Shown: piece by piece, positions 4,830 to 40,966 of the stretch
Layout: every line of letters begins with the position of its first letter
Position numbering within the stretch: the stretch's first letter is position 1
Assembly (NCBI GenBank): GCA_017163975.1
Contig: JAFFSR010000307.1
Span: 620,001 to 684,000 of the forward strand
Length of the DNA: 64,000 nt
Source: Anastatus disparis
Lineage: Eukaryota > Arthropoda > Insecta > Hymenoptera > Eupelmidae
Direction of reading: 5' to 3'
Notes under the pieces: model-generated
Told to the model about the DNA's origin: nothing
The model's input: only the letters and a program-made list of their open reading frames with translations
Database searches by the model: none
Program-made: the position numbers and the translations under genes

Positions 4830-5894
4830 TTATGTTAGAAAAGGATGATAAATACTATTTAATTTACTTGATTCTAACATTAAATTTACATTATTTTTAT
4901 TCTGAAAAATGTGAATATTCTCAAAACTCTCCCTTTTAAATTTATTTTTAATATTATTTTCTAAAATTTCAACATTCACAAAATCAAAAGAATGAACGGA
5001 ATTCAAACAATGTTGCTTCAAACCCGACACAACATTTGGACTTCTCAAACTATATTTATGTTCATAAATTCGTTTCTTTAAATATCTACTTGTCTGTCCA
5101 ATATAATATTTATCACAATCATTACAATTGATCTTGTAAACGACTCCCGATTTTTCATCCTTCTCATCCTTATCTTTACAATTATTAAAAAATCTACCTA
5201 AATTATTATTATTTCTAAAGAAAACCTGAATTTTATGTTTTTTGAATTCATTTCTAATTCCTTCTGACAAACCTCTAACATACGGCAAAACAAAATACAA
5301 GCTTCTAGTTTCTACATCAATTTTCTTTTTTAAATTACTATTATAAATTTCATTCTCCCTCTCCTCAATCATTCTATTAACAAATTCGATTGGATAACTA
5401 TTACTAACAAAAGCCTTTCTAACAATGTTCAAATTTTCTTTTCTGAAATCTATATGTGATAACTTAATCGCGCGATCAATCACACCCTTTAAAGTACCAA
5501 TTTTGTTTCCGAACTGGTGATGTGAATTAAAATTTAAAAATCTACCAGACCAAGTTGGCTTTCTATACCAATTTAGTTTAACTTTATTATTACTGTCCCT
5601 AATTACTTTAATATCCAAAAAACTCAACTGATTATCTGACTCTATTTCTTTAGTAAATTTAATTCTATCATGAACAGAATTAAAAACATCAACCATTTCA
5701 TCCACAAAACAATCTGGCACCACAGCAAAGATGTCATCAACATATCTTTTATAAATTATTGGCTCAAAACTCAATTTCGACCAAGCAACACCCTCCAATT
5801 TTTCCATCACCAAATTAGCTATCACAGGTGACAATGGTGATCCCATCGGACAACCATACCTCTGATCATAAAAAATTTTATCAAAAGAAAAAAC
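4830..5894 (-). pseudogene. Penelope reverse transcriptase/GIY-YIG endonuclease, N-terminally truncated
   Basis: An uninterrupted frame encoding the C-terminal part of the reverse transcriptase, including the catalytic YVDDIF motif, and the GIY-YIG endonuclease (CNDC zinc-like pair, then YYIGQTSR and an EH-containing helix). It lacks the N-terminal reverse transcriptase motifs because the copy is truncated. Upstream codons of the open frame, 5895-5966, are antisense of the adjoining copy. Compared with the longer copy it keeps a Trp codon where that copy has TGA, and lacks an extra T that shifts the frame there. Confidence 0.8.
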
Positions 5895-10237: not shown

Positions 10238-10279
10238 TTCTTTTTTTTTCTTTCTCTTTTCTTTCTGAATAAAATAATA

Positions 10280-19300: not shown

Positions 19301-20170
19301 TTATGCGTTTCCCTGTATATGAGCTGATGTGTTTAATTTAGCTTGACATTCTTCCTCTGTGTGATTCATGTTTTTGCGAAATGTGCAAAATTTACTTAGC
19401 TTACTTTCTATGTTCTTTAATGTAAAGCATGAATCAATTGAATGTCCTAATTTTTTACAATATGCGCATTGTACACTTTGATTTGCGTTTTGAAGTTTTT
19501 TGTATTGTTTTTTCCTACATTCCTCTATATTATGCCCTCTATTTTTGCAATATTTACAAAATTTCGTTTGAATTCTTTGTCCATATGAATTATTATGTCT
19601 GTTATTTCCTACGAACATTTTATGTTGATTAAAATTATTTTGACCGATGTTATTATTTCTACATTCTTTACCCGAGTGACCCCATTTGTCACATAACTGA
19701 CATCGTATTTGATTATCTGGTTTAGCTTGATTTAAAAATATCTTAAATTTTTCACAATCAATAGGATTGTGTTCACTGTTACACAGATTGCATATTTGCG
19801 TAGGTGTATTACTTTTTTCTGTAATTTGATTACAAAGGTTGGTATCATGTCCGTTCTTATTGCATTTTAAGCATAATTCATATTTTTGTATGATTGGACA
19901 GTGGCCTATTTGATGATTATTTTCTTGGCAATATTGGCAATAATATTCATTGTTTTCTAAATATTTACACATGCTTCTTGAATGACCTACTTGATTACAA
20001 AACTTGCATATTAATATAATTTTATCCTTTGCATTTGTGCATTTAAATGACGGATGAGTTGGCTGTTTGCAATGAATACAGCCTGCATTACTGCAACACA
20101 ATGCCTCATGGTCTGTCTTTACATAATTGACAGCATTGAATTTTTTTAGGTTTATCTTCAAAAATTTCAC
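19301..20170 (-). pseudogene. gag: Outer Gypsy gag C-terminus with nine CCHC or CCHC-like knuckles
   Basis: 289 codons dominated by tandem CX2CX3-4HX4C motifs: CIHCKQPTHPSFKC, CKFCNQVGHSRSMC, CQYCQENNHQIGHC, CLKCNKNGHDTNLC, a shorter CNLCNSEHNPIDC, CQLCDKWGHSGKEC, CKYCKNRGHNIEEC and CAYCKKLGHSIDSC, then one degenerate CTFRKNMNHTEEEC. Most retroelement gags carry one or two. Such knuckles bind RNA in nucleocapsids. A frame shift near 20110 separates it from the capsid part, and another break follows at about 19301. Confidence 0.8.
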
Positions 20171-21647
20171 TATACATGATCTTCTGTCTAGACGAATTTG
20201 TCTTTATCCTAATATCCTTCTGTTTCTCCTGTTGTTTTTCAATTTCCATTGCTTTAATGGTTGCACTTGAATAATCTGCTACCTCTCCTAATTCAAATCT
20301 GATTTCATTTTTTAATCCTTGTTTAAAATATTTTAATGTATCTTTAGATAAATCATTTGTAAAACGTTGATAAGCATCTTCTACTATACCTGCTTCATTC
20401 TGTTTCTTATCTTTAAATTTTAATGTTAACTTTGTTGTTCTTTCTACATATTCAACCACTGATTCATTTTCTCCTTGTTGTATTTGTTCTAATTGTGCAT
20501 ACAATGAATGTAAATTATCAATTTCAGGATATAATTTTTTTATTTTTTTAATAAAATTTGCAATACTTTCAATGTTACTACCTTTTATAGCAGTACGTAT
20601 CGTTTCTGATACTTTAAATCTTATATAATTCATAAATTTCTTTTGTTCATCAGCAGTCAGCATATCTTTTGCAATTTCTAACGAATCTATGTATTTTTCC
20701 AAAGGTATATTTTTACCTGTAAATTCAGGTACTAACCTTGACACCTCTTTCAAAGAATATCCTGAAGTATTTGCCATGTTTGTATTATTAGGCATATTAT
20801 TATTATTTATTATATTATTATTTCTACTATTATTATCAAAATTTATATTTTCCAGGTTTCCAATACCCTCTATTTCGTAATAACTCTCTTGTTTAATAGA
20901 AAATTCCTCTAAGTCGCTATTTGTTTCGTCAATAGTTGTATTATTTTCTGATGAAATTGTCACATTTTTGTCTGCTGTATAAGTATTATCAGCTAAAGTA
21001 ATATTTTTTTCGTTTTCAATACTTTTTATTTCTTGATATCCTGTCTGTTTAAATGAAAATTCCTGAGTATCGTTAAGTGATGTATTAGTTTCTGATAAAA
21101 TCGTCACGTTTGTCGCTAAAGTATATTTTTGTGTAAAACCGTCTTCTTTATTATGGCTTTGTTTCGTCTTAGTAATTTGTGGAATTGTTTTTGGAATTGT
21201 GCCTGTATATTTATTTAATAGCGTATTTTGTTCACTTGAATTGTCTGTATTAATTTTTGATTGAACGTCAGTGATTATATTTGAGAGATTATTTTTGGAT
21301 ACTTCTTCTAAAGTTGTATTTGAAGTATTATTATCATCTATTTCGTCTAAAGTTTTATTTAAATTATTACTTTCAATTGTTTGATCTAAACTTTTAGTCG
21401 GAGAGCGTGTAATTTTAGTGCTTTTGCGAAACGGATTAATATTTTCGTAGATATGCTCTCCTAAAACTGCTTGTCTAATATGATTTCTAATTCTTTCACG
21501 AATAGCATTAATATTTTCGTCTTTTTTAGTAGGTATATTGAATTTTTGACAAATTTCAGATAATTGTAATTTAGAGTATGATATTACTTACTGTGTTTTT
21601 CCTTCTTTTATATACTTTGCTATCTGATCAAAATTTATTTTACTCAT
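20106..21647 (-). pseudogene. gag: Outer Gypsy gag, matrix and capsid part
   Basis: The frame is open from about 21588 to 20106. A start at 21647 is separated from it by one in-frame TAA (21589-21591). The N-terminus resembles a SAP-like helix pair (KLQLSEICQKFNIPT), followed by a Ser, Thr and Asn-rich region, then a capsid-like helical part around VPEFTGKNIPLEKYI and VVEYVERTTKLTLKF, as in errantivirus gags. Confidence 0.7.
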
Positions 21648-23391: not shown

Positions 23392-23534
23392 TGTTAAGTC
23401 CTGGCTTGCACCAGAACTGAATAAAAGTGTGTATGTTATTTAATTATATTATTTAATTGTGTAGATATAAATATATATAATGATCTTTTGAAATATTAAA
23501 TTTATTTATAAAATGTCATAAAGATAGAGGTGTA
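23392..23534 (-). repeat. 5' LTR of the outer Gypsy, left piece
   Basis: Matches 779-836 and 1272-1356 of the other LTR. It is cut at 23534 by the Polinton-like element; the LTR resumes at 40315. Confidence 0.85.
23529..23534. repeat. 6-bp target duplication of the Polinton-like element, left
   Basis: GGTGTA here and GATGTA at 40315-40320. The empty site in the left LTR (about 1354) reads GATGTA. One base has changed in the left copy. Six base pairs is the Polinton/Maverick signature. Confidence 0.85.
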
Positions 23535-24054
23535 AGTAGAAAGGGGGCCTGTATGCTAGACACATATGACGTCACAGGGGTACGTGTATTCACGCCCGCG
23601 GGGCGAGTATTCCCGAGCTGGGGGTACGCGTATGACAGATCGGTCGTCTGAGGCGGCGCCTTATCGCTCGGCCTTATCTCGCTTCTAGATAATCGGGAAA
23701 TGGAATTTAGTAAAAAAATAATAAATGTTAATACTAAATAAAATAATAAATGAAAAAATGAAAAAATGTTAAAATCAGTGACAGTAAATTATTGAAAAAA
23801 AATTATTGAAAAAATTAGTAAAATTGAATTTTCAAGAAATAACAAGGAGGATATTGGGATTTTTTGAGAGTTTGTTACTTGGTATAATTTTAGAATATTT
23901 CAAGTTTTTTCTGTTTTTCATATTTTTGATATATTGCCGATTTTCAATATTTTCCTGTATTAATATATTTACGAATTTAAAGAGCGATATTTTACGAGTA
24001 AGTGGAAAAACGTAAAAGAGAAAAACCCTGAAAATCAACACTACACTGTACAAG

Positions 24055-24113
<59 letters not shown>

Positions 24114-24725
24114 CTTTACAACTGTGTGTGTCTGTCTAACCAGCTAGTATTAATGTATAAGCGTGTGTACAACAACGAGTGGAGATGTACGATTGGTGGA
24201 GGTAATAGCAGCGCCAGAAATAGAATGGCCCCTGTTAGAGCGAACGTTACACTTGTGTGTGTGCATCCGTACTCTAAAACTTGGGATGTTTATATTATGA
24301 CCTATATTATGCTGCACGACCAGTGCATTCGCTCTCGACTACATCGCTTACCCGCTCTCTCTCTCTCTCATCGTTCTCCTTGTCGTAAAAGCCGAAGTAC
24401 GTCGTACGGTGCCGAAGACTACCGAGGCTATGCCCTATAGAATACCCAATGACCGTCTTGCCCGGTATCTCCGGCCTTTTATATCGACTTTAACATGCAC
24501 CTTATGCTTAGATGGTGTATGCGTTACACCAATGTATGCAAATACTTCCCTCAATTGATTATTAAAAAAATATATTGTAATATACAATTCATTTTACATG
24601 ATATTCCTTTTTTAGATGGCAGAAAATTTTAATAATAAATGTTAATAATAAATAAATATATATCAATGATAATAAGTTATTAAAAAACTATATTTAAAAA
24701 TAAGTAAAAATTGAAGAAAAATTTT
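23535..24725 (+). repeat. Left terminal inverted repeat of the PolB element
   Basis: About 1191 bp, inverted and closely similar to 39109-40314. It contains a GC-richer outer part (TGACGTCA at about 23566), a (TA)n tract at 24060-24110 and a CTCT run. The open frame 24054-24440 begins in the (TA)n tract and is not conserved as protein in the other copy, so I regard it as noncoding. Confidence 0.9.
24060..24110. repeat. (TA)n microsatellite in the left TIR
   Basis: About 25 TA units. The right TIR has the equivalent tract at 39728-39789, which is slightly longer. Confidence 0.9.
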
Positions 24726-25395
24726 TATTATAAGAATGAAATATTAACTTTAGAGAATAATGATGGAAGGGTATAGAAATAAATAGAGATATATTGGTTT
24801 GATACATTTATTTTTTATAAAATTATTACAACGACGATACAAGTGTATAAGTTTCGGAGTCATACAACTTTGCAAGTCTTACATGTATTTTTTATTTACA
24901 CATATATTTAAAGTAAAAATTTTTTTTGTAGCCATTTCTTTCAGTATGGTGAAATAGCGATTAGTTTTTAACGCATATGTTTTTCTCTGGTCCCATAAGA
25001 AAGTAGTAATATTTACAGTTTCAAGTAAAACAAGCTTTCTATTTTCTACGAATAAGAGAGTAGTAATAAAAGCGATAGATATAATTAAAGAAGTTTTTGG
25101 TCACTGGAAAATAATTTATGATGTGATAAGACATATTCGAAAATTGAAAAGAATTTTCGTTACTATTAATTTATAGGCTTGCGATAAGATAATTATCAAA
25201 GAGAGGGATGACTAAATTTTCGGTTTCTTTTTAAAGATATAATTTTAAAAAGTGAGATAAGAAATGAAAAGATTAAAATTAAAAGAAAGTTGAGAAAAAG
25301 TTTTTTCATATTTTTTTAGGGTATGATAAGGTGATAAAAAAAATAAAAGTGTCTGGTAAGTGATTTTTTTTATTTAAAATAAGACAAAATGTATT
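24726..25395. other. AT-rich gap, no gene
   Basis: Between the left TIR and the first minus-strand gene. No coding or structural signal beyond AT-richness. Confidence 0.5.
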
Positions 25396-26184
25396 TTACA
25401 TTATTTGAGATTCAATTAAAAATTCATTAGAATTGATTTCGGTAAGTTCATCGTAAAATAATTCGTAGTGAAATACAGCTAATTCAAAATAAACAATATC
25501 AAAATAAAATTCTAGAAAAACGTTGTGTATCGAAGCATCGAATTTGCTTTTTACAATATCTTTAATTTGATACATATTCTTGTATAATATATTTTTCACA
25601 ATGAGATCGCCGTTTTTTCTTCGTAAATCTGAATCACTAACTAGAACTATTCATTCTTGAAGTATGTGATCCTTACAGTCATTAACTTGTTGCACAACAC
25701 GTTGAATATGATTAAATCGTTCGTCGATGCACACAGTAGCGTCTCTCAATCCATAAAATGTGCTTTTCTGCATAATTATGGCTGGTGAATAATTTTTTCT
25801 TTTCTTGCACTTATTTTCTGCATCATCCTCGTCGTTACTTTTTTTATCAAAAATAATTGATTTTGTTCCGTAAGATGTGGTAAATTTTAAATCTATTTTG
25901 TCGAGCTGAATTTTGGTTGGAGAGTTAAGACCTTCAGGTTTAAAATACATACAAATGTCTTGAAAATAATTTTGTAATTTGGACCATTTGGCCGAATCCA
26001 AAAGCAATCCATGTAAATGTTGGTTATTTCTTAATTGTACAGATGGCACAAAGGATTTATTTTCTTGATTGTAATGCAACCCAACGGTTGTTCTTTTAGT
26101 GGCTGAGTTATTGAGTGGATAAGTGGTTGTAAGTAAAGTAACGTTTGAAAACGTTTTCGGCTTATCATTATAAGTTTCGGTCAT
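25396..26184 (-). pseudogene. Unknown PolB-element protein A, one nonsense codon
   Basis: A 263-codon frame (26184-25396) with a single TGA at 25651-25653, 177 codons in; the remaining frame continues openly to 25396. The first part is polar with a conserved look (RTTVGLHYNQ, SYGTKSIIFD, a KKRK basic cluster at about 130, then CIDERFNHIQRVV). The C-terminal part is aromatic-rich (FLEFYFDIVYFELAVFHYEL). No family recognised and no membrane segment or signal peptide obvious. It starts at the stop of a 28-codon ORF (TAATG overlap). Either a nonsense-mutated gene or, less likely, two proteins with readthrough. Confidence 0.6.
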
Positions 26185-26267
26185 TATAATTTTAGTACTT
26201 GCTTATTTTTTTCTACTTCCTGGGAAGTCTCGAGATTTATTTTTCTTTTCAGTATAGCTTGATCCAT
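26184..26267 (-). CDS. 28-codon ORF overlapping the start of gene A
   Basis: ATG at 26267, stop TAA at 26186-26184. The A of the stop is the A of gene A's ATG, giving TAATG, an arrangement that permits termination-reinitiation. The peptide is short, charged and Lys/Glu-rich (MDQAILKRKINLETSQEVEK). It could also be the real N-terminus of gene A displaced by a frame shift. Not recognised. Confidence 0.35.
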   Translation of the reverse strand: MDQAILKRKINLETSQEVEKNKQVLKL

Positions 26268-26769
26268 TTTAAACGCAGCAGCCACTATATTTTACTTGAA
26301 AATTTTTCACACACTTGTCTGTTAGACCACAAACCCGAAAAAGTCGTAAAATTCAGTATTTTATTATTCTACAGTCGAGTAAAGTGTCGAGTAACGCTAA
26401 GATGATTCTTAGAGCGGTCAAGTTGCACGACTGTTGAGGAATCAGAAAAACTATGTGACTAGACCTTATAGGGTATAGGCATACATCGATATGTGCTGCG
26501 GAAGCGATAGAATGTTCTCGATAATCTCTTATTTAGTTTATGTATATTTTTATCTCGCATTCGAGTAATGATAAAAAAGAAGCTGGATCGAAAATAAAAT
26601 TTTATGGATCGTAAATATTATGCACTGTCTTATTGCGTAAGTGAAATATTTATCTTATATTTTAAAATTAAAGCTAAATTCAATACTTTGCGACTTTAAC
26701 TTTTAAGCTATGGTTTCATATCTTTTGAAAATATATTTGAAAACTCGGAAAAAAAAGAGGGTCAGAGGT

Positions 26770-26806
26770 TATAAAAATAAGAGTGCCATAGAAAAGAGTA
26801 TCAGTT
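26770..26806 (+). promoter_or_regulatory. TATA-initiator core promoter for gene B
   Basis: TATAAAAATA begins at 26770 and an arthropod initiator TCAGTT lies at 26801-26806, with the initiator A 33 bp downstream of the TATA start, the usual spacing. The gene B start codon follows at 26891. Confidence 0.55.
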
Positions 26807-26890
26807 CAACTCTAAACTTTACTACATTAGGAAGTGTTTTTCAAAGTTTTTTTCAAAAAATTGAAAATTTTTAAAAATTTTAAAATAAAA

Positions 26891-28054
26891 ATGGCATCTA
26901 ACGATCACTCTGTCGACGATATCCTCGTGATGAACGACGATGAAAAAACGGAAAAATTGCGAAGTGTCGTTGCGCGGCGCGTTGCCTTTTTGTGTATAGG
27001 CCAAGAACATTTTCGGCGTGTGTACAATGACGAGTGGTGGGATACGCTAATGTTAATGAGTTTTACAACATTAGCCGGTGAATTAACTGAAATTTTCGAT
27101 CAGCGGACAAATCCGCTTGAGATAGCAATGATGTATGATCTAGCATTGCGTCATAGTGAAACAGCAGTTGTTGTAGTCGGCGATATATTAGCTTACCGAT
27201 CAAGAACGAAAAGGCATCCATTTTACTTAAATCGAGTGCTTAAAAGATACCGTGAAATAAGTGACTAATTTTTATTGTATTTATAAAAATATTGTATTTA
27301 TAAAAATATTGTATTTATAAAAATATTGTATTTATAAAAATATTGTATTTATAAAAATATTGTATTTATAAAAATATTGTATTTATAAAAATATTGTATT
27401 TATAAAAATATTATATTTATACAAATATTGTATTTATAAAAATATTGTATTTATAAAAATATTGTATTTATAAAAATATTTATTATTATTATATACTAAT
27501 CTTTCTTTTATTTTTAGTGAGTAGATTTTTTGAAAATGATCCGAGGGATATACCAGATCACGCTAAAGATTTACACTTAGCGGGTGGTAAAGAAGAAGTG
27601 GTGCACTTGTCACGCATGGTACGTCTGTTGAATGCTGTAGAAGCTGAAAATAGATTCACTTCACCGGATGAGGCAGACGAGGAGACAGAAAAACAAGTAA
27701 TTAAATTAAATAGCAAAAGGAAACTAGCATCTTTCCAAACGTCATGGGACTGTGAGCCGTCTACTTCAGGGTACAAAAGAATGATTAGTAATGACAAAAA
27801 GATTGCCATGGCTGTACAAAAAGGTAATTAAAATAATTAAAAAATGAATATTATAAATACAATATATTGACTTCATGCTTCTAGTTTTTCGGGATAGTTC
27901 TCGATTACCATCGAGGAATAGTTTAATAAGTACAGGCCGTGATGTAGCCGATTGGGTGATTATACAATATTATAGTCAACCTAGATTTTATCCTCCCACA
28001 TCTGACGAAATAGAAAGATTATTTGAATGTTTTCGGGGAGAGCCAGAAGCTTGA
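26891..28054 (+). CDS. Unknown PolB-element protein B, three exons
   Basis: Exons inferred by GT-AG sites and phase: 26891-27260, 27518-27823 and 27885-28054, together 846 nt or 281 residues plus stop, open throughout. The start MASNDHS is chosen over the upstream in-frame Met at 26834 because the preceding codons are Phe/Lys-rich AT leader. Exon 1 encodes a helical domain with FRRVYNDEWWD; exon 2 a charged region (HAKDLHLAGGKEE); exon 3 a short aromatic part (ADWVIIQYYSQPRFYPP). Intron 1 holds a 17-bp tandem repeat. Exon 2 could splice in the same phase to the polymerase exon at 28138. No family recognised. This is one of the few undamaged genes of the element. Confidence 0.6.
27276..27490. 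repeat. 17-bp tandem repeat inside intron 1
   Basis: About a dozen copies of GTATTTATAAAAATATT, nearly identical, within the intron 27261-27517. Confidence 0.9.
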
Positions 28055-28137
28055 AGTTAGATTTTATATTTCAATATTTTTCATTACATGTAAAAATTTA
28101 TATACAAAATAAATTTTAATTATTTTTTTGTTTTCAG

Positions 28138-31100
28138 AAAATATTCAGCAGCAACAGCAGTCGCAACAACAGTCGTCACAACAACAGCAGCAGCAAGTCC
28201 AACAACAACAGCAGCAAGTCCAACAACAGCAGCAAGTCCAACAACAGCAGCAAGTCCAACAGCAGCAGCAACAGCAGCAACAAGAAATAGAAAACTCGTG
28301 CCATGAAGAAGAAAGTGTAATAGTGTGTGAAAATAGTGGTTCTATGAAACAAAATTATAATAACTACGATAATGTGCCGTGTGTTGTGCAAGTAGGTGCA
28401 GGAAGAAAAAACGAAGAGGAAGAAGAGGACGAAGAGGAAGAAGAGAACAGAATTGCTCATGGTAATGTACCAAAAATTAATGAATCTATGCGATACAATC
28501 GTAATTTTAGAATGACCTCTCGCGTTTTAGAATTAAAAATAAATGAACCTTTACACGTCGAAAATATAATTCAGTGGTTAGAGAGTGCTATGCGCGAAAT
28601 TGTAGTTAATGTTAAATCAAAGTGCGGTGAAAACTATAAAGTAGGAATTATAATTAGGTCGAAAGAATTTAATAAGGGCGATGCATATTTAAGTTTTCGA
28701 CACATTACAGATTTACATTTCGATAGCCTATGGAATTTATTTAGTAGCGTAATTCAAAGCAATAGTGATTTTAAATTATACGAAACTTTATTAATGGATA
28801 TCACGTATGTTGAGATACCGATTGGTAGAGGCGATTCGGAAACGTATAATTTTCTAAGTAATGTTAAAAATGGTGTTTTAAAAATTTCTAATACTGATAA
28901 TTTATGTTTACCGCGCGCGTTAGCATGTGGGGAAACTTTGAATAAAACAAAATAGTAGCGAAGAATGGAGAAAATCGTGGAAAAATATAAAAGCGACAGC
29001 ACAGCAAAAACTAAGAGCATTACAGTTACTCGAAATTGGTAATATAAATTTAAGCGAAAATGAAGGATATGGAATACGAGAAATTACGCGTTTCCAACGT
29101 TACTTTTCTCGTCAAAATGTATGCATAAAAGTTTACGAATATGAAACGTTTGGAACAGGTGTTTCGCCGATTTATGACGGTAGCGTAGACATACAACGCG
29201 ATTATAAATATTTTATAAATATTTTGTATTATAAAACCAGTAAACATTATGATTTAATTTTAAATCTTTGGGGCATGAAGGCAAAAATGTATTACTGTAA
29301 TCCCTGTAATGTAGCTTATAAAAAAATTTTAAGTCATAAGTGTAACAACGTCTGTTCTGCGTGTAATGGAATACTAAATTGTGCGAATAATAATAACATG
29401 GAAAACAAAATCCGATGCGATGATTGTGGGCGTGACTTTTATTCCCAAAAGTGCTTTACAAATCATAAAAAGGTAGGATCACTTTCGCGAAATGAAAAAA
29501 AAATAGATGTAAAAAATCAATTTGTGATAGCATAAAGATTTATCAAACGTGTTTAAAATTCTGCGATAAAACAAAGGGTAACATACACGAATGCGGGAAA
29601 AAATATTGTAACACTTGTAAAATTATTCATGATATAAATTCATTTTGTTTTATGCCGGTTATTAATAAAAGTAAAAAAAAAATAGTAAGTCACCGGAAAA
29701 TTGCTATATATTTACGATTTTGAAACGCGACAGGATGAACGATTAGGGGAATCTAACAATACATTTATACACATACCAAATTTATGTGTCGCACAGCTTT
29801 GTTGTGAAGTTTGTGCGGGAGAACCAGATATGCGCAGGTTGTGTAGTTTTTGTGGTGTTGGACAACACATTTTTACAGGGGACGAATGTTTAAAGAATTT
29901 TGTAAATTTTGCCGTCCGTACAACAAAAAGAAATTTTTCATCTTTTATTTGTATAGCGCATAACGCTAAAAGTTTTGACGTCCAATTTATTTCAAAATAT
30001 ATTTTGGATCATGAGAAAGAGTTGGTTCCTCATGTAATATTAAACGGTAGGAATATAATTAAATTACAAGTAGGTTTAACTAAATTCATTGACAGTTTAA
30101 ATTATATGCCAATGAAACTAGCTAATTTACCCAAAACATTCGGTCTTCCCGAAGGGGAAAAAAAAGGTTATTTTCCTCATTTATACAACACCAAAGAAAA
30201 CGAAAATTATATAGGACCATACCCTCCCTCTTCTGCGTATTCGCCCGACAGCATGAGTACCGACGATCGTATACAATTTTTCAAATGGTACAATAGCGTA
30301 GCACACGAAGAATTTGATTTGAGAAAAGAATTGATAGAATATTGTGTGCAGGACGTAAATATTTTACGACAAGCATGTATCATCTTTAGAAAAATATTTT
30401 TAGATATTGCTAATGTTGATCCGTTTAGCGAAAGCGTCACCATTGCAAGCGCTTGTTCCACAGTTTTCCGTAAAAAGTTTTTAAATGCCAACGAGATCGG
30501 AATAATACCTCAGTCTGGTTATTTAAGAGGGGGACAATATTCTCAAAAATGCGTAGAATGGATGCTATGGCAGGAGAATCTTTTCAAAAAAGAAATTATT
30601 CATGCCGGTAGAGCACGAGAATATTCTTTGATAGAAGGCCCGCGTGTTGACGGTTGATTAAATGATGATGAAAACGGAAAAGGGACTGTGTTTCAGTACC
30701 ATGGTTGTTTTTATCATGGATGCCCACGCTGTTTCAAAGAAAACAGAAACAATATATTGAATAGTGGGAAAACGTTTGCTCAACGATACGAGGAAACGCG
30801 TACCATGTCTAATAAAATAAAATCTTACGGGTATAATCTTATAGAGGTGTGGGAATGTGATTTCGATGAAAATATAAAAAATAATCCTAATATCAAAAAT
30901 TATATAAAAAATCACCCCAAGGCCGCTCGCGATGCATTTTTCGGCGGACGCACGGGTAATGTGGTTACCCATTATAGTGTATGTAATAACGAAAAAATAA
31001 ATTACATAGACCTGTGCTCGCTGTATCCGTTTATTTGTAAGACAGCTAGTTTTCCCATAGGACACCCGCAAATTTTTTCAACTACCGAATGCTTCGATCT

Positions 31101-32343
31101 AACAGGTGAAAACTTTGAAAACTTTTCACAAAATGTAGAAGGCCTAGTAAAATGCGATATTTTACCACCGCAGAATTTGTTTCATCCGGTTTTACCTGTA
31201 AAAATGCACAATAAATTACTTTTCCCGCTATGTAGATCCTGCTGTGAAAGTTTAAATCAAGATGATTGCTTTCACAGCGCTAAAGAGCGTATATTATCCG
31301 GAACTTGGGTTTCCGCTGAAATAAAAAAAGCTCTAGAGTTGGGATACGTATTGATAAAAATTTATGTTATTTGGCAATATCAAGTAACAAAATACGATCC
31401 CGACATTAGATCTGGCGGCCTATTCACTGAATATATTAATACATTTTTAAAAATAAAACAAGAATCGAGCGGTTGGCCTTCCGTTGTAAAAACAGAGGAA
31501 GAAAAAATTAATTATTTAAATAAATATAAACAAGAAGAGGGGGTAACTTTGGATTATGATAAAATAAAAAATAATCCTGGTATGCGATCTGTCGCAAAAT
31601 TATGCCTCAATTCATTTTGGGAAAAGTTTGGTCAGCGAGACAACCTACCTCAAACTTCGATAGTTCGGACTTTTCAAGAGTTTTTAAACTATTTGACAGA
31701 TCCGGAAAAAATAATTCAACATTGTTTGCCTATCAATGAGGAAGTAGTGTATATATCGTGGAAATACAAAGAAGAATGTATTTCCTCATCGCCTTGTACC
31801 AACGTAGTCATAGCAGCCTATACTACGGCACAAGCGCGACTAGAATTATACAAATATTTATATTGCTTGGGCGACAGAGTGTTGTATTATGATACAGATT
31901 CTGTCATATACCTCAGTCGTAATGATGGTAGCGAAGAATACGAACCACCGACAGGGCCTTTGTTAGGTCAAATGACGAACGAACTTGAGTGCTACGGTGA
32001 AAACGCGTATATAGAAACTTTTGTTTCAGTGGGGCCAAAATTTTACGGAATGCGTATAAAAACGGCGAGCGGAGAAACTTTTGATACATGCAAAATCAAA
32101 GGAATTCGATTGAATTATGAAAATACACTAAAAATAAATTTCGAGACTATAAAAGATTTAATTAAAAAATATCGCGAGTCTAATGATAATAAGAACGTAA
32201 TACGTATAACAAATAACGTAATTCGAAAAACTGCTATTCACGAAGTTGTATCGCGCACTGAAGAAAAAACTTGCTCGGTCGTTATTAAAAAAAGACGTTT
32301 TATTTCTAATGATAAATCGTACCCTTATGGTTTCAAAATTTAA
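28138..32343 (+). pseudogene. polB: Protein-primed family B DNA polymerase with Cys/His-rich N-terminus
   Basis: Replicates the element from a protein primer, as in Polintons and adenovirus-type systems. Begins after a TTTTCAG acceptor with a polyglutamine tract (about 28143-28290), an acidic stretch, and a helical N-domain ending DNLCLPRALACG. A Cys/His-rich region follows (CNPCNVAY, CSACNGIL, CDDCGRDFYSQKC, then CxxC/CxH pairs to 29650). Exonuclease motifs: YDFETR (29710), AHNAKSFD (29958) and YCVQDV (30340). Polymerase motifs: HGCFYHGCPRC, DLCSLYP (31008), KLCLNSFWEKFG (31598), YYDTDSVIY (31885). Lesions: one extra base in an A-run near 28950, frame shifts near 29522 and 29700, and TGA at 30655-30657. 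The final 551 codons are intact. Confidence 0.9.
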
Positions 32344-32530
32344 TTTTAACGAACGTTTTATTTTTATAGGAACTATCGAATTTCCTCGACGATATGGCGA
32401 TGAAGAATGCTGTAGCGATATAAATTGTCGCGTACCAAGATGTTATAGGCCCCAATATAAACAATCATTAGAAGGTATAGCCTGGCATAGAGTTATACAT
32501 AATTTAATTTTATTATAAAAAAATAATCAA

Positions 32531-32875
32531 ATGACCACGTATAAGCATATGTTGAGAACCATAGATTTATTAAAACATAATAATAATATTACTGTTTCTG
32601 TATTATTAAAAGGTTATTTTCGAAGACAAATTTGTGTCATGTGCGATAATGAAGTGTGTCGAGATCGATTTTGTTACAGAGTGTTAATAACGAAATGGGA
32701 CGAATGCAAAAGACTTTGTAAAGATGTTAATATATCGAAAATTGTTAACATAATCGATGAAAATAAGATCGATAGCGCTGTATTTACGATTAACAATATA
32801 AGACGACGAGATCGTTTACTATGTAGAATGAAGGATACTCGATGTCACATACATTACTGTGTAACGCGTGATTGA
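32531..32875 (+). CDS. Small Cys-rich protein of the PolB element
   Basis: 114 codons, open, 188 bp after the polymerase stop on the same strand. Cysteine pairs (ICVMCDNEVCRDRFC, then RLCRMKDTRCHIHYC) suggest metal binding. Not recognised, no signal peptide. Could be cotranscribed with the polymerase. A TTAA palindrome inserted just downstream. Confidence 0.5.
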   Translation: MTTYKHMLRTIDLLKHNNNITVSVLLKGYFRRQICVMCDNEVCRDRFCYRVLITKWDECKRLCKDVNISKIVNIIDENKIDSAVFTINNIRRRDRLLCRMKDTRCHIHYCVTRD

Positions 32876-32908
32876 ATTGTTAAAGTTGCGTCTGTAAATT
32901 TACATTAA

Positions 32909-33288
32909 GAGGAAGTCACGTATCTCCGTCCTTTTCTAATCAAAGAATTATTTTTTTGCAATAACTAATAACTTTAGCAAAAAATAAAGAGATAGCCCCA
33001 TCTCGTATAACAAAAAGCAATATTTTCTTTGAGGAGAAATAATTGATTTTATCTTTTCTTCTTCAAGAAAACCTTGAAAAACCAAATTGTTTACAATAAC
33101 CTCTATGTTTCAAGTTTTTCAAGGTTTTTTTGGAAACGAAGCAATAAAATCAATTCTTTCTCATCAAAGAAAATATTGCTTTTTGTAATACGAGATGGGG
33201 CTATCTCTTTATTTTTTGCTAAAGTTATTAGTTATTGCAAAAAACTCAATTCGTTGATTAGAAAAGGACAGATATATTCGACCTGCTC
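32909..33288. mobile_element. TTAA palindromic MITE, copy 2
   Basis: A 380-bp palindrome (GAGGAAGTCACG...CGACCTGCTC) flanked by TTAA (32905-32908 and 33289-33292). It is younger than the PolB element that contains it. Confidence 0.85.
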
Positions 33289-33292
33289 TTAA

Positions 33293-33658
33293 GAATATTT
33301 TGTAAAACTAATTGATAAATAATATGTAAGCCTATGTATTTTTTACATCAATGTATTTTTAATGATAAAAAATAAATTTTTAAAATGTACCCAAATATTT
33401 TTTATTTCTTTTATTGTTGAATATTTTATTTACAGGTTACCATCGTAATACAATTTTTTCTTATAAAAATAATGCTAAATTTTCTAATAAAATTATTTAA
33501 TATAAATAACATAATCTTCATTTAAATTATTTAATATGAATAACAATTTTAATTTGAATCACTTTTTTATATTTTATAAATATATTAATTAATGCACAAA
33601 TATTCATTGATAAAAATTCACCATTTTATATAATAAGTAGAAAAATAAACTTTATGTA
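33293..33658. other. AT-rich gap, no gene
   Basis: 3' flank of the Tudor-domain gene. No coding signal. Confidence 0.5.
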
Positions 33659-34492
33659 TCAATCTTTACAACATGGATCGTTTGGCCATATAGGATGGTG
33701 AAATCCTACGACGTCCCTCACAGCTACATCGAAAGCACATAGTGCGATATTTATATGGAGACTAGTGCCTGTATGTTTACTGGTACAAGATAAAAAAATG
33801 TAGTAAGTATTTTTCAATATTCTTTTTTCCATAAAATACGCATGTAAATTCTGGTTTTTTTTTAAATTTTCAAACAATTCGCATGCTCGTTTCGACCATT
33901 GATATCCCGTGGATGAAAGAGGTACAATTTTTCCCAATCCGCATAAAATTGCTCTCGGAGGTAATGTTAAAAATTGATGATCTAGTTCATAAATACCGTT
34001 TTCTTCATTTGTACGATACAAATTGAACGTGATTCCTGTATCGATCATTTTACAACGTCGAGGATTTTCTTCACAAGTCAGGCATCTTATCCATTTATTT
34101 CTACACTTGATTGCTATATTCATTCGATATTAAAAGAAAAATATTGTTAGTAAATTTATTTAAAATTTATTATAAAAAAATTATTTACTTGAATGTACTT
34201 ACTTTCAATTCCGATATTTTAAATTGTTTCAAACACACCGTGTCTGCAATTTCTGAAGTTTGAGTTTCATCTGTATCAAAAAATTTACGATTTGCAGTAA
34301 ATGCAATAAGTGCAAATAATACATTTCTCTTTCCAACGAATTATATTGAATATCTTCGTCACATAACTGCACGTAAAAAGACGACGGAGATGAAAAATGC
34401 GAGATCCGTACATTTTTCACTTTATCTATTAAATTTGTATGATGACGATTTTTAATGTTTAGTAATGAAATCATATTAAAAAAGAAAAACAT
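33659..34492 (-). pseudogene. Tudor-domain protein encoded within the PolB element
   Basis: Two exons on the minus strand: 34492-34203, donor GTAAGT, intron 34202-34114, exon 34113-33659 after AATATAG. Exon 1 holds RISHFSSPSSFYVQL, the usual start of an extended Tudor domain. Exon 2 gives NKWIRC, CKMIDTG in the position of the core DYG strand, then ELDHQFLTLPPRAILCGL and WSKRACELF, the C-terminal elements of extended Tudor domains. Such domains bind methylarginine ligands, often in Piwi/piRNA complexes. A frame shift near 34330 in exon 1 breaks the frame, though the second frame and the splice phase are consistent. Starts at 34492 or 34474. Probably captured from a host gene. Confidence 0.65.
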
Positions 34493-34569
34493 TTGTGTCG
34501 ACAGCGGTTAAGACGTATTCTTATTTCTTCGGCTACTTATTTTGACAACTCGTTAACTATAAATTTTAA

Positions 34570-34930
34570 CTTATCTTCCGCAGCTAGTAGGGTGTGATGT
34601 CTTTCAGAGTTTAGTGTAAACTACAAGCTATAAACTGGAGCTGTTAGTAACGCAATTTGAGCCTTAGAGAGAGATAACGCGGGAGTCCCAAGCGTATCGG
34701 ATAGCTTCAAGCAGCGCTGGTCGTGTGCCGTCGCTCATACAGCTAGTAGGCGCACGCGCACGCTCGTAAGCCTTATCGTATCTAGCTCGCTGTTTCTCCG
34801 CCCGCTTACTCGGCTCATACGCGCGCGGTTATCAGCCTTACGAACCCGCGACTAGCTTTCTTATTTCACCGCTAGCAGTTTGAGCGCGCCGGCCGCGAAC
34901 ACCCTCCACTATAAGGCTTACAGAGACGCT
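34570..34930. other. GC-rich, CpG-rich block in the PolB element
   Basis: Stands out from its AT-rich surroundings, with many CGCGCG and GCGC stretches (about 34740-34900). No frame is open across it on either strand as far as I read. It lies just upstream of the minus-strand Tudor gene and could be a promoter region or an untranslated first exon. Confidence 0.4.
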
Positions 34931-35149
34931 GTTTGATTATTATAATTGTATATATTATTTTATTAAAATATTTATCAGTAGCAAACATGAACACTTTGTG
35001 GCGTCATCCCTTTACTTGTTTGCTGGCGGGTCCTACATGATGATTATGGAGATATCCAGAACTGTCTTTACTTATCTAGTAAATAAATTTACTATTTTAA
35101 AACTGAAATAAGAAATGAAATTATAAAAAAGAGAATTTAAAGTTACAAT

Positions 35150-35360
35150 AATTTTACAATATTTACGAAAGAAAAATTTTAAAACGAAAAAACTGTAAAG
35201 AAATATTTTTTATTCTTTAAATTAACGCAAGAAAAATTTTAAAATAAAAAACTGTGAAGAAATATTTTTATTCTTTAAATTAACGAAAGAAAAATTTTAA
35301 AACGAAAAACTAAAGAAATATTTTTTACTATTTAAATTAATGAAAGAAAAATTTTAAAAA
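35150..35360. repeat. Tandem repeat of about 59 bp
   Basis: Three to four units containing GAAAGAAAAATTTTAAAACG and AAAGAAATATTTTTTATTC, diverging. Confidence 0.75.
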
Positions 35361-35743
35361 GAAAAAAAGTGTCAACAGATAAAAATGTAATAAATACTAT
35401 TATGATGTTAGTGGTTGTAAAAATTCTGACCTGAAAGAAGGTACGTACCGCTTTATTAGCTTCTACACCGCTACCTTCGACTTCTCTAGCTACATATGTT
35501 TTACCAATCGTTCGAGTGTTGAGAGAAAGTTTTCCCTCTACTTAATCGTTAAAAAAGAAAATATATTTATATAGCAAATTTTAATTATATATATACTATT
35601 TAAAAATAACTAAGTTTCAATTTACGCAAGAAAATTCTTTTAAAAAAATTAAAGAAAGAGGTTGCTAAAATAAATAACCACATTCGCTAAGTTTTATTCA
35701 TTTGTTTAAAAAAAATTTTTTACAGATTTTTTACTAAAAATAA

Positions 35744-37460
35744 AAAGTTTTTAAAATACACACACAAAACTTAAAATAAATACACACACACACACACACA
35801 ATCAAACTAAAATTCTTAAAATTAACATATAATTAAATTAAAACTAAAAATAAAAAGTTTTTAAAATACACACACAAAACTTAAAATTAATACGTACACA
35901 CACAATTAAACTAAAATTCTTAAAATTAACATACACGGAAATGACAGATAACAGCTAGGCTATATTTGTCACATTAGTAATCAATGTGTGTCGAAAATTT
36001 TGAGTTTCCACATAGATGGGCGATGTGTGCACACCGAATTTCTATGTTTGCGCATTGTCTAACTACACTCAACTCATAGGAGGTTGTCACACTGATCATC
36101 TTTTATTTTCGCACTGCTTGTCAATGTGTAAACATAGAAATTTTAAATCTGACATGTATGGAAAAAAAATAAATTAAAATAAAACTAAGCTTATGATCCT
36201 TGGTATCAATGAATATCTGAATTGGAAGATAATTCTGACTTTAATATATTAATTAGTGCTATTTTAATGATAAAATTTTTAATTTAATCAAAAACATTAT
36301 TATTAATAATTTAAACATGAGAGATTATTACTGTTAGCAATGCAATCATTGAAAATAATGTACGTAGGGTTCAATGTTTCGAAAGTCCATTATCTTTTTT
36401 TAGAATTTTGAAATTTTAAATGGTTTTTTCATAATATTTATTTAAATTGTACAGAAAGTCAATTTTTATTTCATGTTTGTTATCGACATGCATTTATTCG
36501 GATAAATTATAATCGCTTTAGGATTGTAACAAGTATGCAGAATACCGTAAAATGATGAAATACTTTTCGGGTTTTTTAATGAAATTTTCAACAAGTATTA
36601 AAAAAAAATACATTGAAATACTATATTAGAAATTTCAAAGTACCTCATCATTATATTATTGTCTGAATACTTATTACAGTCCTAAATATAAATTATAATT
36701 TATTTGAATGAATACATTTCGATTACAAACATAAATTAAAAACGAAATTCCTATTCAATTTATATAAATATTAAGAATGTGCTATTGGAAATTTTTAAGC
36801 TCGTAAAAATAACAGATTTTCGAAATATCGAACTCCACCCACATTATTTTTAATGATTTCAACATTGAATTGCTAACAAAAATAATTTCTCATGTTAAAA
36901 TTATTAATAATAATGTTTTTATTAAATTAAAAATTTTATCATTAAAATAGCACTAATTAATATATTAAAGTCAGAATTATCTTCCAATTCAGATATTCAT
37001 TGATACCGAGGATCATAACCTTAGTTTTATTTTAATTTATTTTTTTTTCAAACATGTCAGATTTAAAATTTCTATGTTTACACATTGACAAGCAGTGCGA
37101 AAATAAAAGATGATCAGTGTGACAACCTCCTATGAGTTGAGTGTAGTTAGACAATGCGCAAACATAGAAATTCGGCGTGCACACATCGCCCGTCTATGTG
37201 GAAACTCAAAATTTTCGACACACATTGATCACTAATGTGACAAATATAGCCTAGCTGTTATCTGTCATTTCCGTATATAATTAAATTAAAACTAAAAATA
37301 AAAAGTTTTTAAAATACACACACAAAACTTAAAATTAATACACACACACAATTAAACTAAAACTAAAATTCTTAAAATTAACATATAATTAAATTAAAAC
37401 TAAAAATAAAAAGTTTTTAAAATTTACACACAAAACTTAAAATTAATACACACGCATACA
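35744..37460. repeat. Roughly 100-bp AT/CA-rich tandem repeat split by a palindromic element
   Basis: Units containing AACTAAAAATAAAAAGTTTT, CACACACAAAACTTAAAATT and CTTAAAATTAACATATAATT occur twice left of the 35934-37275 element and twice right of it. Intact units supply the empty target site of that element. Ends in a (CA)n tract near 37450-37480. Confidence 0.75.
35934..37275. mobile_element. 1.34-kb full-length palindrome with TA duplication
   Basis: Begins CACGGAAATGACAGATAACAG; its complement ends at 37275. The two halves match almost base for base over the outer 400 bp and more loosely to the centre at about 36605. TA flanks it (35932-35933 and 37276-37277), and intact neighbouring repeat units give the unoccupied sequence AACATATAATT. 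TA duplication suggests a Tc1/mariner-type mobiliser. No coding. Confidence 0.75.
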
Positions 37461-37481
37461 CACACACACACACACACACTA

Positions 37482-38714
37482 TCACCATTCACTTTCGTTG
37501 CTGGTATCCCACGTTTCCTCCATGCGATTCTCATACTGTATTTGCATGTTATTATTTTTTTCTTTCTCTCGCGCCTCTTCTTCTTCTTCTTCTGCAAACG
37601 CATCATCCTGTGCCTCAAACTTGTTATAGATCGTGTAGTTACGAGCTAAATCATACTTGTAACTTGCAGCTTCTAACGCTTCTCGTGTATAATTACGTAG
37701 AGGATCCTCTACGTATTAAAAAATTGATTTGAATTTATTGAGCATTGTTATTTCAACAAATGCTACAATACCTTGTTCGATACCATAGTCGGTATCCAGC
37801 ATTTGTGTCGCGTTTAAGAACAGTTCTTCCAAATTTTTGTGTTGGCTGCAGATATTACCGTATCCGTAGACAGGTCTGCCGCATATTCTGAGACTGGGGT
37901 GTTGTTCGAATCCGGTGATTTGACACTCGCACCGGTTCACAAAACTGCATGTTATCATTTTTTTCATACCTTTACAGATAGCTGTAATCAGGCTGTTCCA
38001 TTTAATCGCAAGCTTGAATGGTACCATTCTAAGCTCTGTTTTATGGCATCTCACCGATACTGCATAAAACACTTTTTTTATCTGTAGCCACGACTTTTTA
38101 AATACGCTGGATTTTTCTGGCGTATTTTCATAGTAGGTAGAGAGGTTTATAACACTATGAGTGTATCTCCCGTTTACACTTCTTTCGTCGTTTATATTAA
38201 TTATACGGTTATTCACGTCTAACCAGTAATCTTTGCTAACGTATTCCAGTCTCCTATTCCAACGGGCGTGATTATCATCGCGCACTATGCTGAAATAACG
38301 TACATAGCATTCTCGTGGATGTAGCTCGACAAACGCTACTAATCCGACGTCCATACCGTGATTGTGTTCAGGATCAGGATGGTCCAAGTTCGTCATGTGG
38401 TATAATCTGCAGTATTGTCCCATCATTTTCTTATGATGCGAACAATACTTTTCTTCAGCACTTTTTACATCACGACTTATGACGATTCTCCCGCATTTTC
38501 TCTCTGGTTACGATATACATGTAATTACACAACCCGCACATTCTCTCACTCTTTGACACGTGAAAACTTTTATCACCCTGTTAGCTATCGTACTCACTAT
38601 ATCGTTCCATAACAAGACTATTCGGCCTGGGAGAAGGCTTACCTCCCACGCGTTGTATTCTAAGTACAATGCAAAAATTAAAGTTTTAAAAAAACAAAAT
38701 AAATTTAAACTCAT
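37482..38714 (-). pseudogene. Unknown PolB-element protein F with duplicated Cys/His motif
   Basis: A 411-codon frame from MSLNLFCFF (38714) to TGA at 37484-37482, with two in-frame TAA stops (38510-38508 and 37718-37716). Between them lies a 236-codon open stretch. Two related metal-binding-like motifs appear: CAGCVIT...KCGRIVISRD...CSHHK near the N-terminus and CECQITG...ICGRPVYGYG...CSQHK near residue 310. A YFSIVRDDNHARWN and STYYENTPEK block lies between. The tail is very acidic (EEEEEE) and ends in Trp. Not recognised. The end of the element facing gene A is symmetrical: both terminal genes are on the minus strand. Confidence 0.6.
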
Positions 38715-39108
38715 TTTAACGTTTTTTTTTTAAAAAATATTTTAAACTAGATAATATCTAAGATAGTGAACCCAAAAAATCAGTCTGACGTCTAGTATTT
38801 TTGGAAAAATATTTACGAGTGAAAATAGACTAAATCGAAAAAAATCCTTTACCCATCTATTTTTCATTTTTTATAACTTGCCAAAAAAAAGTTTATGTGG
38901 GAGTGGGATAGGGTAGCATATGGATTTTATTACACCCTTAGAATATCCTTTAAAAATTTTCAATTCCGTCTTGTCGCATACTTTTACTTTTGAACGCTCA
39001 ACATGCGAAGTATTGAACGACACATGGTTAAAATTTTTTGACCATCTCAGTCAATATTTCGCATGTTGAGTGTTTAAAAAGAAAAGTATTAAGTTTTCAT
39101 TATCTGCG
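38715..39108. other. Gap with a short inverted repeat, no gene
   Basis: Contains CTCAACATGCGAAGTATTGA (about 38997) facing TCAATATTTCGCATGTTGAG (about 39051), a hairpin adjacent to the inner TIR edge. No coding. Confidence 0.5.
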
Positions 39109-39723
39109 AAAATTTTTCTTCAATTTTTACTAATTTTTAAATATAGTTTTTTAATAATTTATTATCATTGATATATATTTATTTATTATTAACATTTATT
39201 ATTAAAATTTTCTACCATCTAAAAAAGGAATAGCGTGTAAAATCAATTGTATATTACAATATATTATTTTAATAATCAATTGAGGGAAGTATTTGCATAC
39301 ATTGGTGTAACGCATACACCATCTAAGCATAAGGTGCATGTTAAAGTCGATATAAAAAGCCGGAGATACCGGGCAAGACGGTCATTGGGTATTCTATAGG
39401 GCATAGCCTCGGTAGTCTTCGGCACCGTACGACGTACTTCGGCTTTTCCGACAAGGAGAACGATGAGAGAGAGAGAGAGAGCGGGTAAGCGATGTTGTCG
39501 AGAGCGAATGCACTGGTCGTGCAGCATAATATAGGTCATAATATAAACATCCCAAGTTTTAGAGTACGGATGCACCCACACAAGTGTAACGTTCACTCTA
39601 ACAGGGGCCATTCTATTTCTGGTGCTGCTATAACCCCCACCAATCGTACATCTCCACTCGTTGTTGTACACACGCTTATACGTTAATACTAGCTGGTTAC
39701 ACAGACACACACAATTGTAAAGC

Positions 39724-39793
<70 letters not shown>

Positions 39794-40314
39794 GCTTGTA
39801 CAGTGTAGTGTTGATTTTCAGGGTTTTTCTCTTTTACGTTTTTCCACTTACTCGTAAAATATCGCTCTTTAAATTCGTAAATATATTAATACAGGAAATA
39901 TTGAAAATCGGTAATATATCAAAAATATTAAAAACAGAAAAAACTTAAAATATTCTAAAATTATACCAAGTAACAAACTCTCAAAAAATCCCAATATCCT
40001 CCTTGTTATTTCTTAAAAAATTCAATTTTACTAATTTTTTCAATAATTTTTTTTCAATAATTTACTGTCACTGATTTTAACATTTTTTCATTTTTTCATT
40101 TATTATTTTATTTTTTATTAACATTTATTATTTTTTTACTAAATTCCGTTTCCCGATTATCGAGAAGCGAAATAAGGCCGAGCGATAAGGCGCCGCCTCA
40201 GACGACCGATCTGTCATACGCGTACCCCCAGCTCGGGAATACTCGCCCCGCGGGTGTGAATACACGTACCCCTGTGACGTCATATGTGTCTAGCATACAG
40301 GCCCCCTTTCTACT
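39109..40314 (-). repeat. Right terminal inverted repeat of the PolB element
   Basis: About 1206 bp; inverted match to 23535-24725, with a (TA)n tract at 39728-39789. The outermost 80 bp differ by a single base from the left TIR. Confidence 0.9.
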
Positions 40315-40966
40315 GATGTATGAATCTAGTGGTGGAAAAACTCCACCAATATTTAATTGAACGAAATCGCTCTCGCGATTGAATATTATTAAAGGATAAA
40401 CTTGATTCTTGAAATAAAAAGTTTATTAAATAATTATATATTCTTACCTTGTAGAATTTCTCAGTAGATTGGTGCTGAGTATGGGCAGACAAAGAATAGA
40501 TATAGGCACGATTTAAAATAAGACTCGAGTCGAATATAAGAAACTTTTAAAATATTTATTGACACTTGTAAAAATAATTAATATTGAGCACAATAACTGA
40601 ATTTGAATTTAAATTTGAATTACAGGATTTACGACTTGGTACCAACGATGATCCTGGGGTAGTGCCGACTGCCGTCCATTTCAGTCGGCTTTTATAATTT
40701 TTTATCTTTGACATAATTTCATTAGGTAAAAAGTGGATCTTGTTCTTCTTATAAATAATTTCAAAATGTGAGTTTGGTTTTGTAATTTTGAATCGAAGAA
40801 TTTCGTTTGCTCAATATCAACTTTAAGTTTCTTTACTGCTTAGGTTAACACATTCTTTTATTGTTCGATGACTGTTTAATTAGTTCATCAATATCATGTT
40901 AGTAAAAAGATATTTTAACAATTGTAAGTTAAAAAATAATATATAAGGATACGTTGTGACGTAACA
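40315..40966 (-). repeat. 5' LTR of the outer Gypsy, right piece
   Basis: Starts with the 6-bp duplication GATGTA, then matches 1360-2006 of the left LTR almost base for base, ending GTGACGTAACA. Confidence 0.85.

What the first reader, a model, noticed from the sequence alone, without database searches (positions are those of the whole stretch)
23535..40314. Non-canonical Polinton-like element: PolB, long TIRs and 6-bp duplication, but no visible integrase or virion genes
Seen: 1.2-kb inverted termini starting AG and ending CT, GGTGTA/GATGTA duplication, and a family B polymerase with all three exonuclease and three polymerase motifs plus the GCFYHGCPRC block typical of protein-primed enzymes. 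Established: Polintons make 6-bp duplications and normally encode an rve integrase, ATPase, protease and capsids. Here I see none, yet six other genes occupy the space. This may be a distinct lineage with a cargo-rich, virion-less lifestyle, or a derivative relying on another element's integrase.
Basis: partly seen in the sequence, partly recalled or inferred. Interest (0 to 1): 0.9.

Follow-up and report, generated by a model that had tools for sequence, protein, structure and literature searches.

The report
Replication half of split Polinton virus
This decayed virus-like mobile element carries a DNA-copying enzyme gene but no integrase or shell genes, while other copies with the same ends in the same genome carry integrase, packaging-motor and likely shell genes but no copying enzyme, so the two kinds likely work together as one virus whose genome is split in two.

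Summary
In detail: 1.2-kb inverted ends (96%), a 5-of-6 target duplication, a decayed family-B polymerase, no integrase or virion genes. The ends recur on 32 contigs of the host genome. Of 12 contigs read, 3 copies (type R: this one, C340, C329) carry PolB without virion genes; 8 (type V) carry integrase-chromodomain, A32-like ATPase, likely protease and capsid genes in varying completeness, without PolB; 1 is a lone end. Ten of ten testable copies of both types have their own 6-bp duplication (7 perfect, 3 five-of-six). The gene that both types share is strongly diverged between them (dS 0.52-0.76; clades 100/100), yet the ends are about 92% alike and do not separate by type (AU p=0.0007). 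All R copies share one scar inside the ATPase gene, so R spread as R. Best reading: the replication segment of a bipartite Polinton, likely integrated and packaged by V's proteins. Twenty contigs are unread and a genome-wide search for complete copies did not complete. The GCFYHGCPRC block belongs to the known Vsr-like insert of group I Maverick polymerases.

The parts
23529..23534 (.). left target duplication GGTGTA
23535..24725 (+). left TIR; outer 380 b about 92% alike between R and V elements
24726..24944 (+). stretch inside the TIR also shared with type V (about 90-94%)
25399..26202 (-). gene shared by R and V types (two pieces, stop at 25651); longer piece 55-61% protein identity between types; function unknown
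26831..28051 (+). R-specific pieces 26831-27265, 27457-27828, 27857-28051; perhaps exons upstream of PolB
   Evidence: exon reading by eye
28113..29532 (+). PolB amino-terminal region (polyQ; NTDNLCLPRAL motif that looks OTU-like by eye; cysteine-pair motifs)
   Evidence: no Pfam domain above cut-off
29689..30654 (+). PolB exonuclease domain
   Evidence: Pfam 2.5e-17
30658..32340 (+). remainder of the Vsr-like insert (about 30658-31000) and the PolB polymerase domain
   Evidence: Pfam 9.3e-21
32519..32872 (+). small cysteine-rich ORF, R-specific
33662..34507 (-). Tudor-like gene in pieces (33662-34129, 34188-34340, 34232-34507), possible GT..AG intron by eye
   Evidence: TUDOR best 9e-05, below cut-off
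34518..35036 (+). relic of the type V ATPase upstream region and first 17 codons, cut just before the P-loop; same scar in 3 of 3 R copies
37485..38729 (-). cysteine-rich gene in three pieces (stops at 37716 and 38508), R-specific; no relatives found
39109..40314 (-). right TIR
40315..40320 (.). right target duplication GATGTA
32905..33293 (.). later MITE-like insertion, absent from this site in C329 and C340
35920..37289 (.). later palindromic insertion, absent from this site in C329 and C340

Best explanation
The window element is a decayed copy of a PolB-bearing element (type R) that shares its ends with partner elements (type V) carrying integrase, packaging-ATPase and likely protease and capsid genes, and the two types likely form the two genome segments of one bipartite Polinton-like virus. 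Shown, within the 12 contigs read: complementary gene sets; common termini; a 6-bp duplication at each testable unit; R copies at three loci with one common scar; purifying selection on PolB between R copies. Inferred: R's PolB copies both segments from the common termini; V's integrase inserts both; V's ATPase and capsid package both; exchange of ends between segments keeps the termini alike while the coding interiors drift apart. The common scar in the ATPase gene suggests that R arose once, by deletion or recombination that removed the virion module from a fuller element.
For: R-specific pieces (13 queries) occur in 3 of 3 R and 0 of 8 V elements; V-specific pieces (13 queries) in 0 of 3 R apart from the 38-residue ATPase start. 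Seventeen PolB relatives (17 of the 120 listed) find PolB only in C300, C329 and C340 among the 12 contigs. V domains: one open integrase ORF in C253 with rve 4.1e-11 and Chromo 7.2e-09, both above cut-off, and PFV integrase at 1.7e-05 in the PDB; Pox_A32 2.7e-06, above cut-off. TSDs: 7 of 10 copies 6/6, 3 of 10 5/6, both types. Shared gene, longer piece: R-V dS 0.52-0.76, R-R 0.02-0.06, V-V 0.09-0.12; shorter piece: R-V 0.34-0.51, R-R 0.05-0.12, V-V 0.005-0.12. Outer 380 b of TIR: mean identity R-R 0.950, R-V 0.919, V-V 0.898. The TIR data reject R as one clade, p-AU 0.00074; the shared block gives R and V as clades, 100/100. PolB dN/dS 0.34-0.38, p<1e-6 in 3 of 3 R pairs. Same ATPase scar in 3 of 3 R.
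Against: No copy with every gene intact was seen, and no transcript, particle or episome was tested. Only 12 of 32 contigs with TIR matches were read; a complete copy may exist among the rest, and the genome-wide PolB search did not complete. Selection on V genes is weak: p<0.05 in 8 of 21 pairs for the MCP candidate (one more printed as 0.05), 5 of 21 for INT (all with C236), 2 of 21 for ATPase, 0 of 10 for PRO (5 of 8 elements given). Other R genes: 1 of 3 pairs; the Tudor-like piece shows no constraint (dN/dS 2.87). The capsid reading rests on position, size and recalled motifs, with no Pfam or PDB hit; the protease on one sub-cut-off hit (0.005) that the C253 copy did not repeat. The TIR tree itself is poorly resolved (2 of 8 inner branches starred). 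End exchange could be ordinary recombination between a parent and its deletion derivative.
Confidence: 0.6

Rival explanations
1. R is a satellite or non-autonomous derivative of a complete Polinton that still exists or recently existed in this genome, and V copies are a second, independent deletion class. R moves in trans, but no stable two-segment genome exists.
For: The ATPase scar shows that R descends from or recombined with an ATPase-bearing element. Only 12 of 32 TIR contigs were read. Published Polintons lacking capsid, protease and ATPase were read as concerted loss (PMC4028283, passage).
Against: 0 of 11 gene-bearing copies read is complete; 8 of 8 V copies show no PolB trace with 17 PolB queries at E 0.01. 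In the longer piece of the shared gene the smallest R-V dS is about 4 times the largest within-type dS, in the shorter about 3 times, so both types seem to have persisted apart.
Confidence: 0.3
2. This copy is an ordinary Polinton that lost its integrase and virion genes after insertion.
For: The copy is plainly decayed: stops, frame breaks and two later insertions.
Against: Two other R copies (C340 with its own TSD; C329 at a third locus, outer right end missing) have the same gene set and the same scar, so the gene set predates this insertion.
Confidence: 0.03
3. A virion-less, cargo-rich Polinton lineage that spreads with an integration enzyme of its own or of the host, for example the Vsr-like nuclease in PolB.
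For: The PolB family carries a Vsr-like insert with conserved VDG, HGC and WEC motifs; R-specific cargo is present.
Against: R copies carry the same termini and 6-bp TSD as the rve-bearing V copies; the Vsr-like insert is an ordinary mark of group I Mavericks (PMC10328495, passage).
Confidence: 0.07

Closest known systems
Polinton/Maverick, group I polymerase
   Same: TIRs, family-B polymerase of protein-primed type with Vsr-like insert (PMC10328495, passage), 6-bp duplication; on the V partner rve integrase, A32-like ATPase and likely protease and capsid
   Different: genes are divided over two separately integrated elements; this one lacks integrase and virion genes
Adintoviruses
   Same: defined by PolB with OTU-like N-terminus, hexon, and integrase with C-terminal chromodomain (PMC11071296, passages); the R+V pair shows the chromodomain integrase and a possible OTU-like motif
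   Different: Drosophila-associated adintovirus 1 has PolB, integrase, capsid, protease and FtsK on one 14.5-kb contig (PMC8363768, passage); here no copy read has both PolB and integrase
Bidnaviruses / Drosophila Vesanto virus
   Same: PolB-bearing insect viruses with split genomes, up to twelve segments for Vesanto virus (PMC8363768, passages)
   Different: no parvovirus NS1 or capsid family found here; this pair has integrase and A32-like ATPase
Polintons without capsid genes (nine elements, PMC4028283, passage)
   Same: lack MCP, protease and ATPase together
   Different: there read as loss; here partner elements with the missing module and shared ends are found
Multipartite viruses with conserved untranslated regions (PMC10868557, start of abstract in listing)
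   Same: complementary genes and similar noncoding ends
   Different: here both parts are seen only as chromosomal insertions

Membership tests
Polinton/Maverick | long TIRs and 6-bp target duplication (recalled as marks) | tested here: met
   5 of 6 in this copy
[quoted passage not shown]
Polinton/Maverick group I | Vsr-like insert in the polymerase | tested here: met
   criterion from PMC10328495, passage
Polinton/Maverick | rve integrase in the element | tested here: not met
   absent from R; present in 7 of 8 V
Polinton/Maverick | packaging ATPase, protease and capsid genes in the element | tested here: not met
   only a 17-codon ATPase relic in R; candidates lie on V
Adintovirus | PolB with N-terminal OTU-like domain | tested here: inconclusive
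   NTDNLCLPRAL motif seen by eye; no OTU Pfam hit
Adintovirus | rve integrase with C-terminal chromodomain | tested here: not met
   not on R; on V: rve 4.1e-11, Chromo 7.2e-09
Adintovirus | hexon recognisable by BLASTp to known adintoviruses | not tested
   no adintovirus hexon was at hand; PDB and Pfam searches of the V candidate found nothing
Bidnavirus | parvovirus-type NS1 helicase and capsid | tested here: not met
   no such Pfam family in the 90 pieces scanned
Bipartite virus | two units with complementary essential genes | tested here: met
   within the 12 contigs read
Bipartite virus | shared ends on both units | tested here: met
Bipartite virus | each unit needs the other to spread | not testable with these tools
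   needs expression or infection data

The most novel reading that the evidence does not exclude
A natural bipartite Polinton: a dsDNA virus of the double-jelly-roll kind whose genome is split into a replication segment and an integrase-virion segment, each integrating on its own and kept compatible by exchange of ends. Many 'capsid-less' or 'polymerase-less' Polintons in animal genomes may be halves of such pairs.
Probability: 0.5. Interest if true: 0.93.

Novelty: new variant of a known kind. Interest (0 to 1): 0.85.

Why it matters
Polintons lacking the capsid module have been read as concerted loss (PMC4028283, passage). Complementary units with shared, exchanging ends would make genome splitting directly testable in a dsDNA lineage, with a fossil (the ATPase scar) of how the split arose. 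Modelling proposes that cheating leads to multipartite viruses (PMC10159356, title and start of abstract in the listing); this could be a natural case. It also warns that surveys which group elements by polymerase or by capsid alone could file the two halves as unrelated families.

Tried and rejected
GCFYHGCPRC as a protein-priming mark: rejected. The insert's profile matches Vsr endonuclease (1odg, 1vsr, 1cw0, E about 4e-06; TIGR00632 in 12 of 17 members, best 2.7e-06 but 27.7 bits against a cut-off of 97.85; Pfam Vsr in 5 of 17, best 0.021). I first took it to be unreported; checking the papers listed showed that a Vsr-like insertion already defines group I Mavericks (PMC10328495), while the insect elements added there lack it.

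Viral contigs: PolB and capsid-candidate scans gave nothing usable; L001, a 32% match over 102 residues, was dropped. Protein searches with the cysteine-rich and Tudor-like pieces found no relatives. PDB searches with three R genes were empty or weak. The single-sequence model of the shared gene is worthless (pLDDT 37.7) and was not searched. Viral-library Foldseek hits of the PolB relative include adintovirus, densovirus and adenovirus polymerases at 12-15% identity, too distant for placement. The Vsr-like insert was not folded apart. C214, a lone TIR end with no R or V gene apart from a 29.5% EXO-like match in about 30 kb, was left out of type counts. The C253 right end aligned badly and lowers some identities. 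Papers on a bipartite or segmented Polinton: none among the best 20 of 120 listed or the best 15 of 35. The nematode Polinton polymerase paper is not held. PMC12721341, PMC12567637 and PMC6431247 were seen as passages; a term search in PMC3671162 found nothing; in PMC5718144 one passage was seen.

Full report
1. Observation. The element spans 23535-40314 (16,780 b). Its TIRs (23535-24725, 39109-40314) align over 1,207 columns at 96.1% identity and end AGTAGA...TCTACT; the flanking hexamers are GGTGTA and GATGTA. The largest ORFs far exceed Markov sequence. Pfam finds DNA_pol_B_2 on two pieces and a weak TUDOR on two, and no integrase, ATPase, protease or capsid family, in 90 of 120 pieces of 45 aa or more. 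The PolB gene is broken in several places.

3. The ends recur. The outer 298 b of the TIR give 51 matches (40 of 317 candidates scored, a lower bound) on 32 contigs of the 939-Mb host genome.

4. Two kinds of interior. Type R: this copy, C340 (29.1 kb with insertions) and C329. All three carry the PolB pieces, the upstream pieces, ORF 32519 and the cysteine-rich gene; Tudor-like pieces are in all three, only 11% of the main piece in C329. Type V: C346, C236, C253, C118, C311, C74, C51, C391. They carry an A32-like ATPase (7 of 8; Pox_A32 2.7e-06), an integrase (7 of 8; one open ORF in C253 with rve 4.1e-11 and Chromo 7.2e-09), a likely protease (8 of 8, 25% of it in C51; Peptidase_C5 0.005 in C346, below cut-off, no hit in C253) and candidate MCP (8 of 8, 23% in C51) and mCP genes (7 of 8). 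MCP and mCP are my reading from position, size and recalled motifs; no database hit supports them. No V copy shows PolB with 17 PolB queries, and no R copy shows a V gene beyond the ATPase start. C214 is a lone end.

5. Each unit integrated by itself. Of ten copies with both ends, seven have perfect 6-bp duplications and three (C300, C340, C311) agree at 5 of 6; 14 of 527 shifted controls reach 5 of 6. C329 lacks its outer right end and C214 has one end, so they were not tested. R copies without an integrase gene thus carry the same insertion mark as V copies with one.

6. Ends and interiors tell different histories. R and V share one gene near the left TIR (window 25399-26202, minus strand; in 3 of 3 R and 6 of 8 V). 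In its longer piece synonymous divergence is 0.52-0.76 between types, 0.02-0.06 within R and 0.09-0.12 within V; in the shorter piece 0.34-0.51, 0.05-0.12 and 0.005-0.12. The TIRs, about 0.7 kb away, are 91.9% identical between types on average, against 95.0% within R and 89.8% within V. A test on the 11 left ends rejects R as one clade (p-AU 0.00074; R was defined by gene content), though the tree itself has only 2 of 8 inner branches starred; the shared block puts all R on one side and all V on the other (9 rows, 100/100). The simplest reading is that ends have been exchanged between types while interiors have not. A further 219 b inside the TIR and a 519-b block at 34518-35036 are also shared at about 90-94%, apart from one 81% piece in C51.

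7. A scar. The 519-b block is the region upstream of the V ATPase gene plus its first codons. In all three R copies the reading frame starts MNTLWRHPF and stops just before the P-loop, with a small further deletion in C340. One event founded R, and R then reached at least three loci. PolB is under purifying selection between R copies (dN/dS 0.34-0.38, p<1e-6 in 3 of 3 pairs); the other R genes pooled show it in 1 of 3 pairs, and the Tudor-like piece not at all. For V genes selection is weaker: MCP candidate p<0.05 in 8 of 21 pairs, INT 5 of 21, ATPase 2 of 21, PRO 0 of 10 with 5 of 8 elements given.

8. Reading. Complementary gene sets, common and apparently exchanging ends, separate insertion marks and a single origin of R fit a bipartite Polinton: R likely supplies replication, V likely supplies integration and packaging. 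The main rival is that R is a satellite, and V a second deletion class, of a complete element that I did not see. Twenty TIR contigs are unread and the genome-wide PolB search did not complete, so I put the bipartite reading at 0.6. The checks strengthened the integrase, weakened the protease and removed any novelty of the Vsr-like insert; on balance the odds stay.

9. Known neighbours. Polintons and adintoviruses are described with polymerase, integrase and virion genes together (PMC11071308, PMC11071296, PMC8363768, passages). Capsid-less Polintons were read as concerted loss (PMC4028283, passage). Segmentation is known in PolB-bearing bidna-like viruses (PMC8363768, passages). The 6-bp duplication and AG...CT ends as Polinton marks are recalled, not taken from a paper read here.

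Noticed in passing
window 9158-10279 (-): A retroelement-rich left flank holds a clear Monjiviricetes fusion glycoprotein ORF (Pfam 2.9e-99) near rve (14100-15185, 4.8e-13) and weak gag-like (20109-21587) ORFs; it looks like an LTR retroelement with a captured viral envelope gene.
   Followed up: partly
window 33662-34507 (-): The R element carries a Tudor-like gene (TUDOR best 9e-05), possibly spliced, with no relative found in the protein collection; a captured piRNA-pathway-type domain would be of interest.
   Followed up: partly
window 4833-5969 (-): RVT_1 and GIY-YIG on one ORF, as recalled for Penelope-like elements.
   Followed up: no
L018-L020 (C391): A V copy with virion-module pieces in both orientations between one pair of ends.
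   Followed up: no
L011 4952-5814: A mariner-type transposase ORF (Transposase_1 1.7e-19) inside a V copy.
   Followed up: no
L040 3341 and L023 2186: Weak matches to the V EXO-like (29.5%) and integrase (31%) genes near C214 and C311 may come from a second, distant element family in this genome.
   Followed up: no
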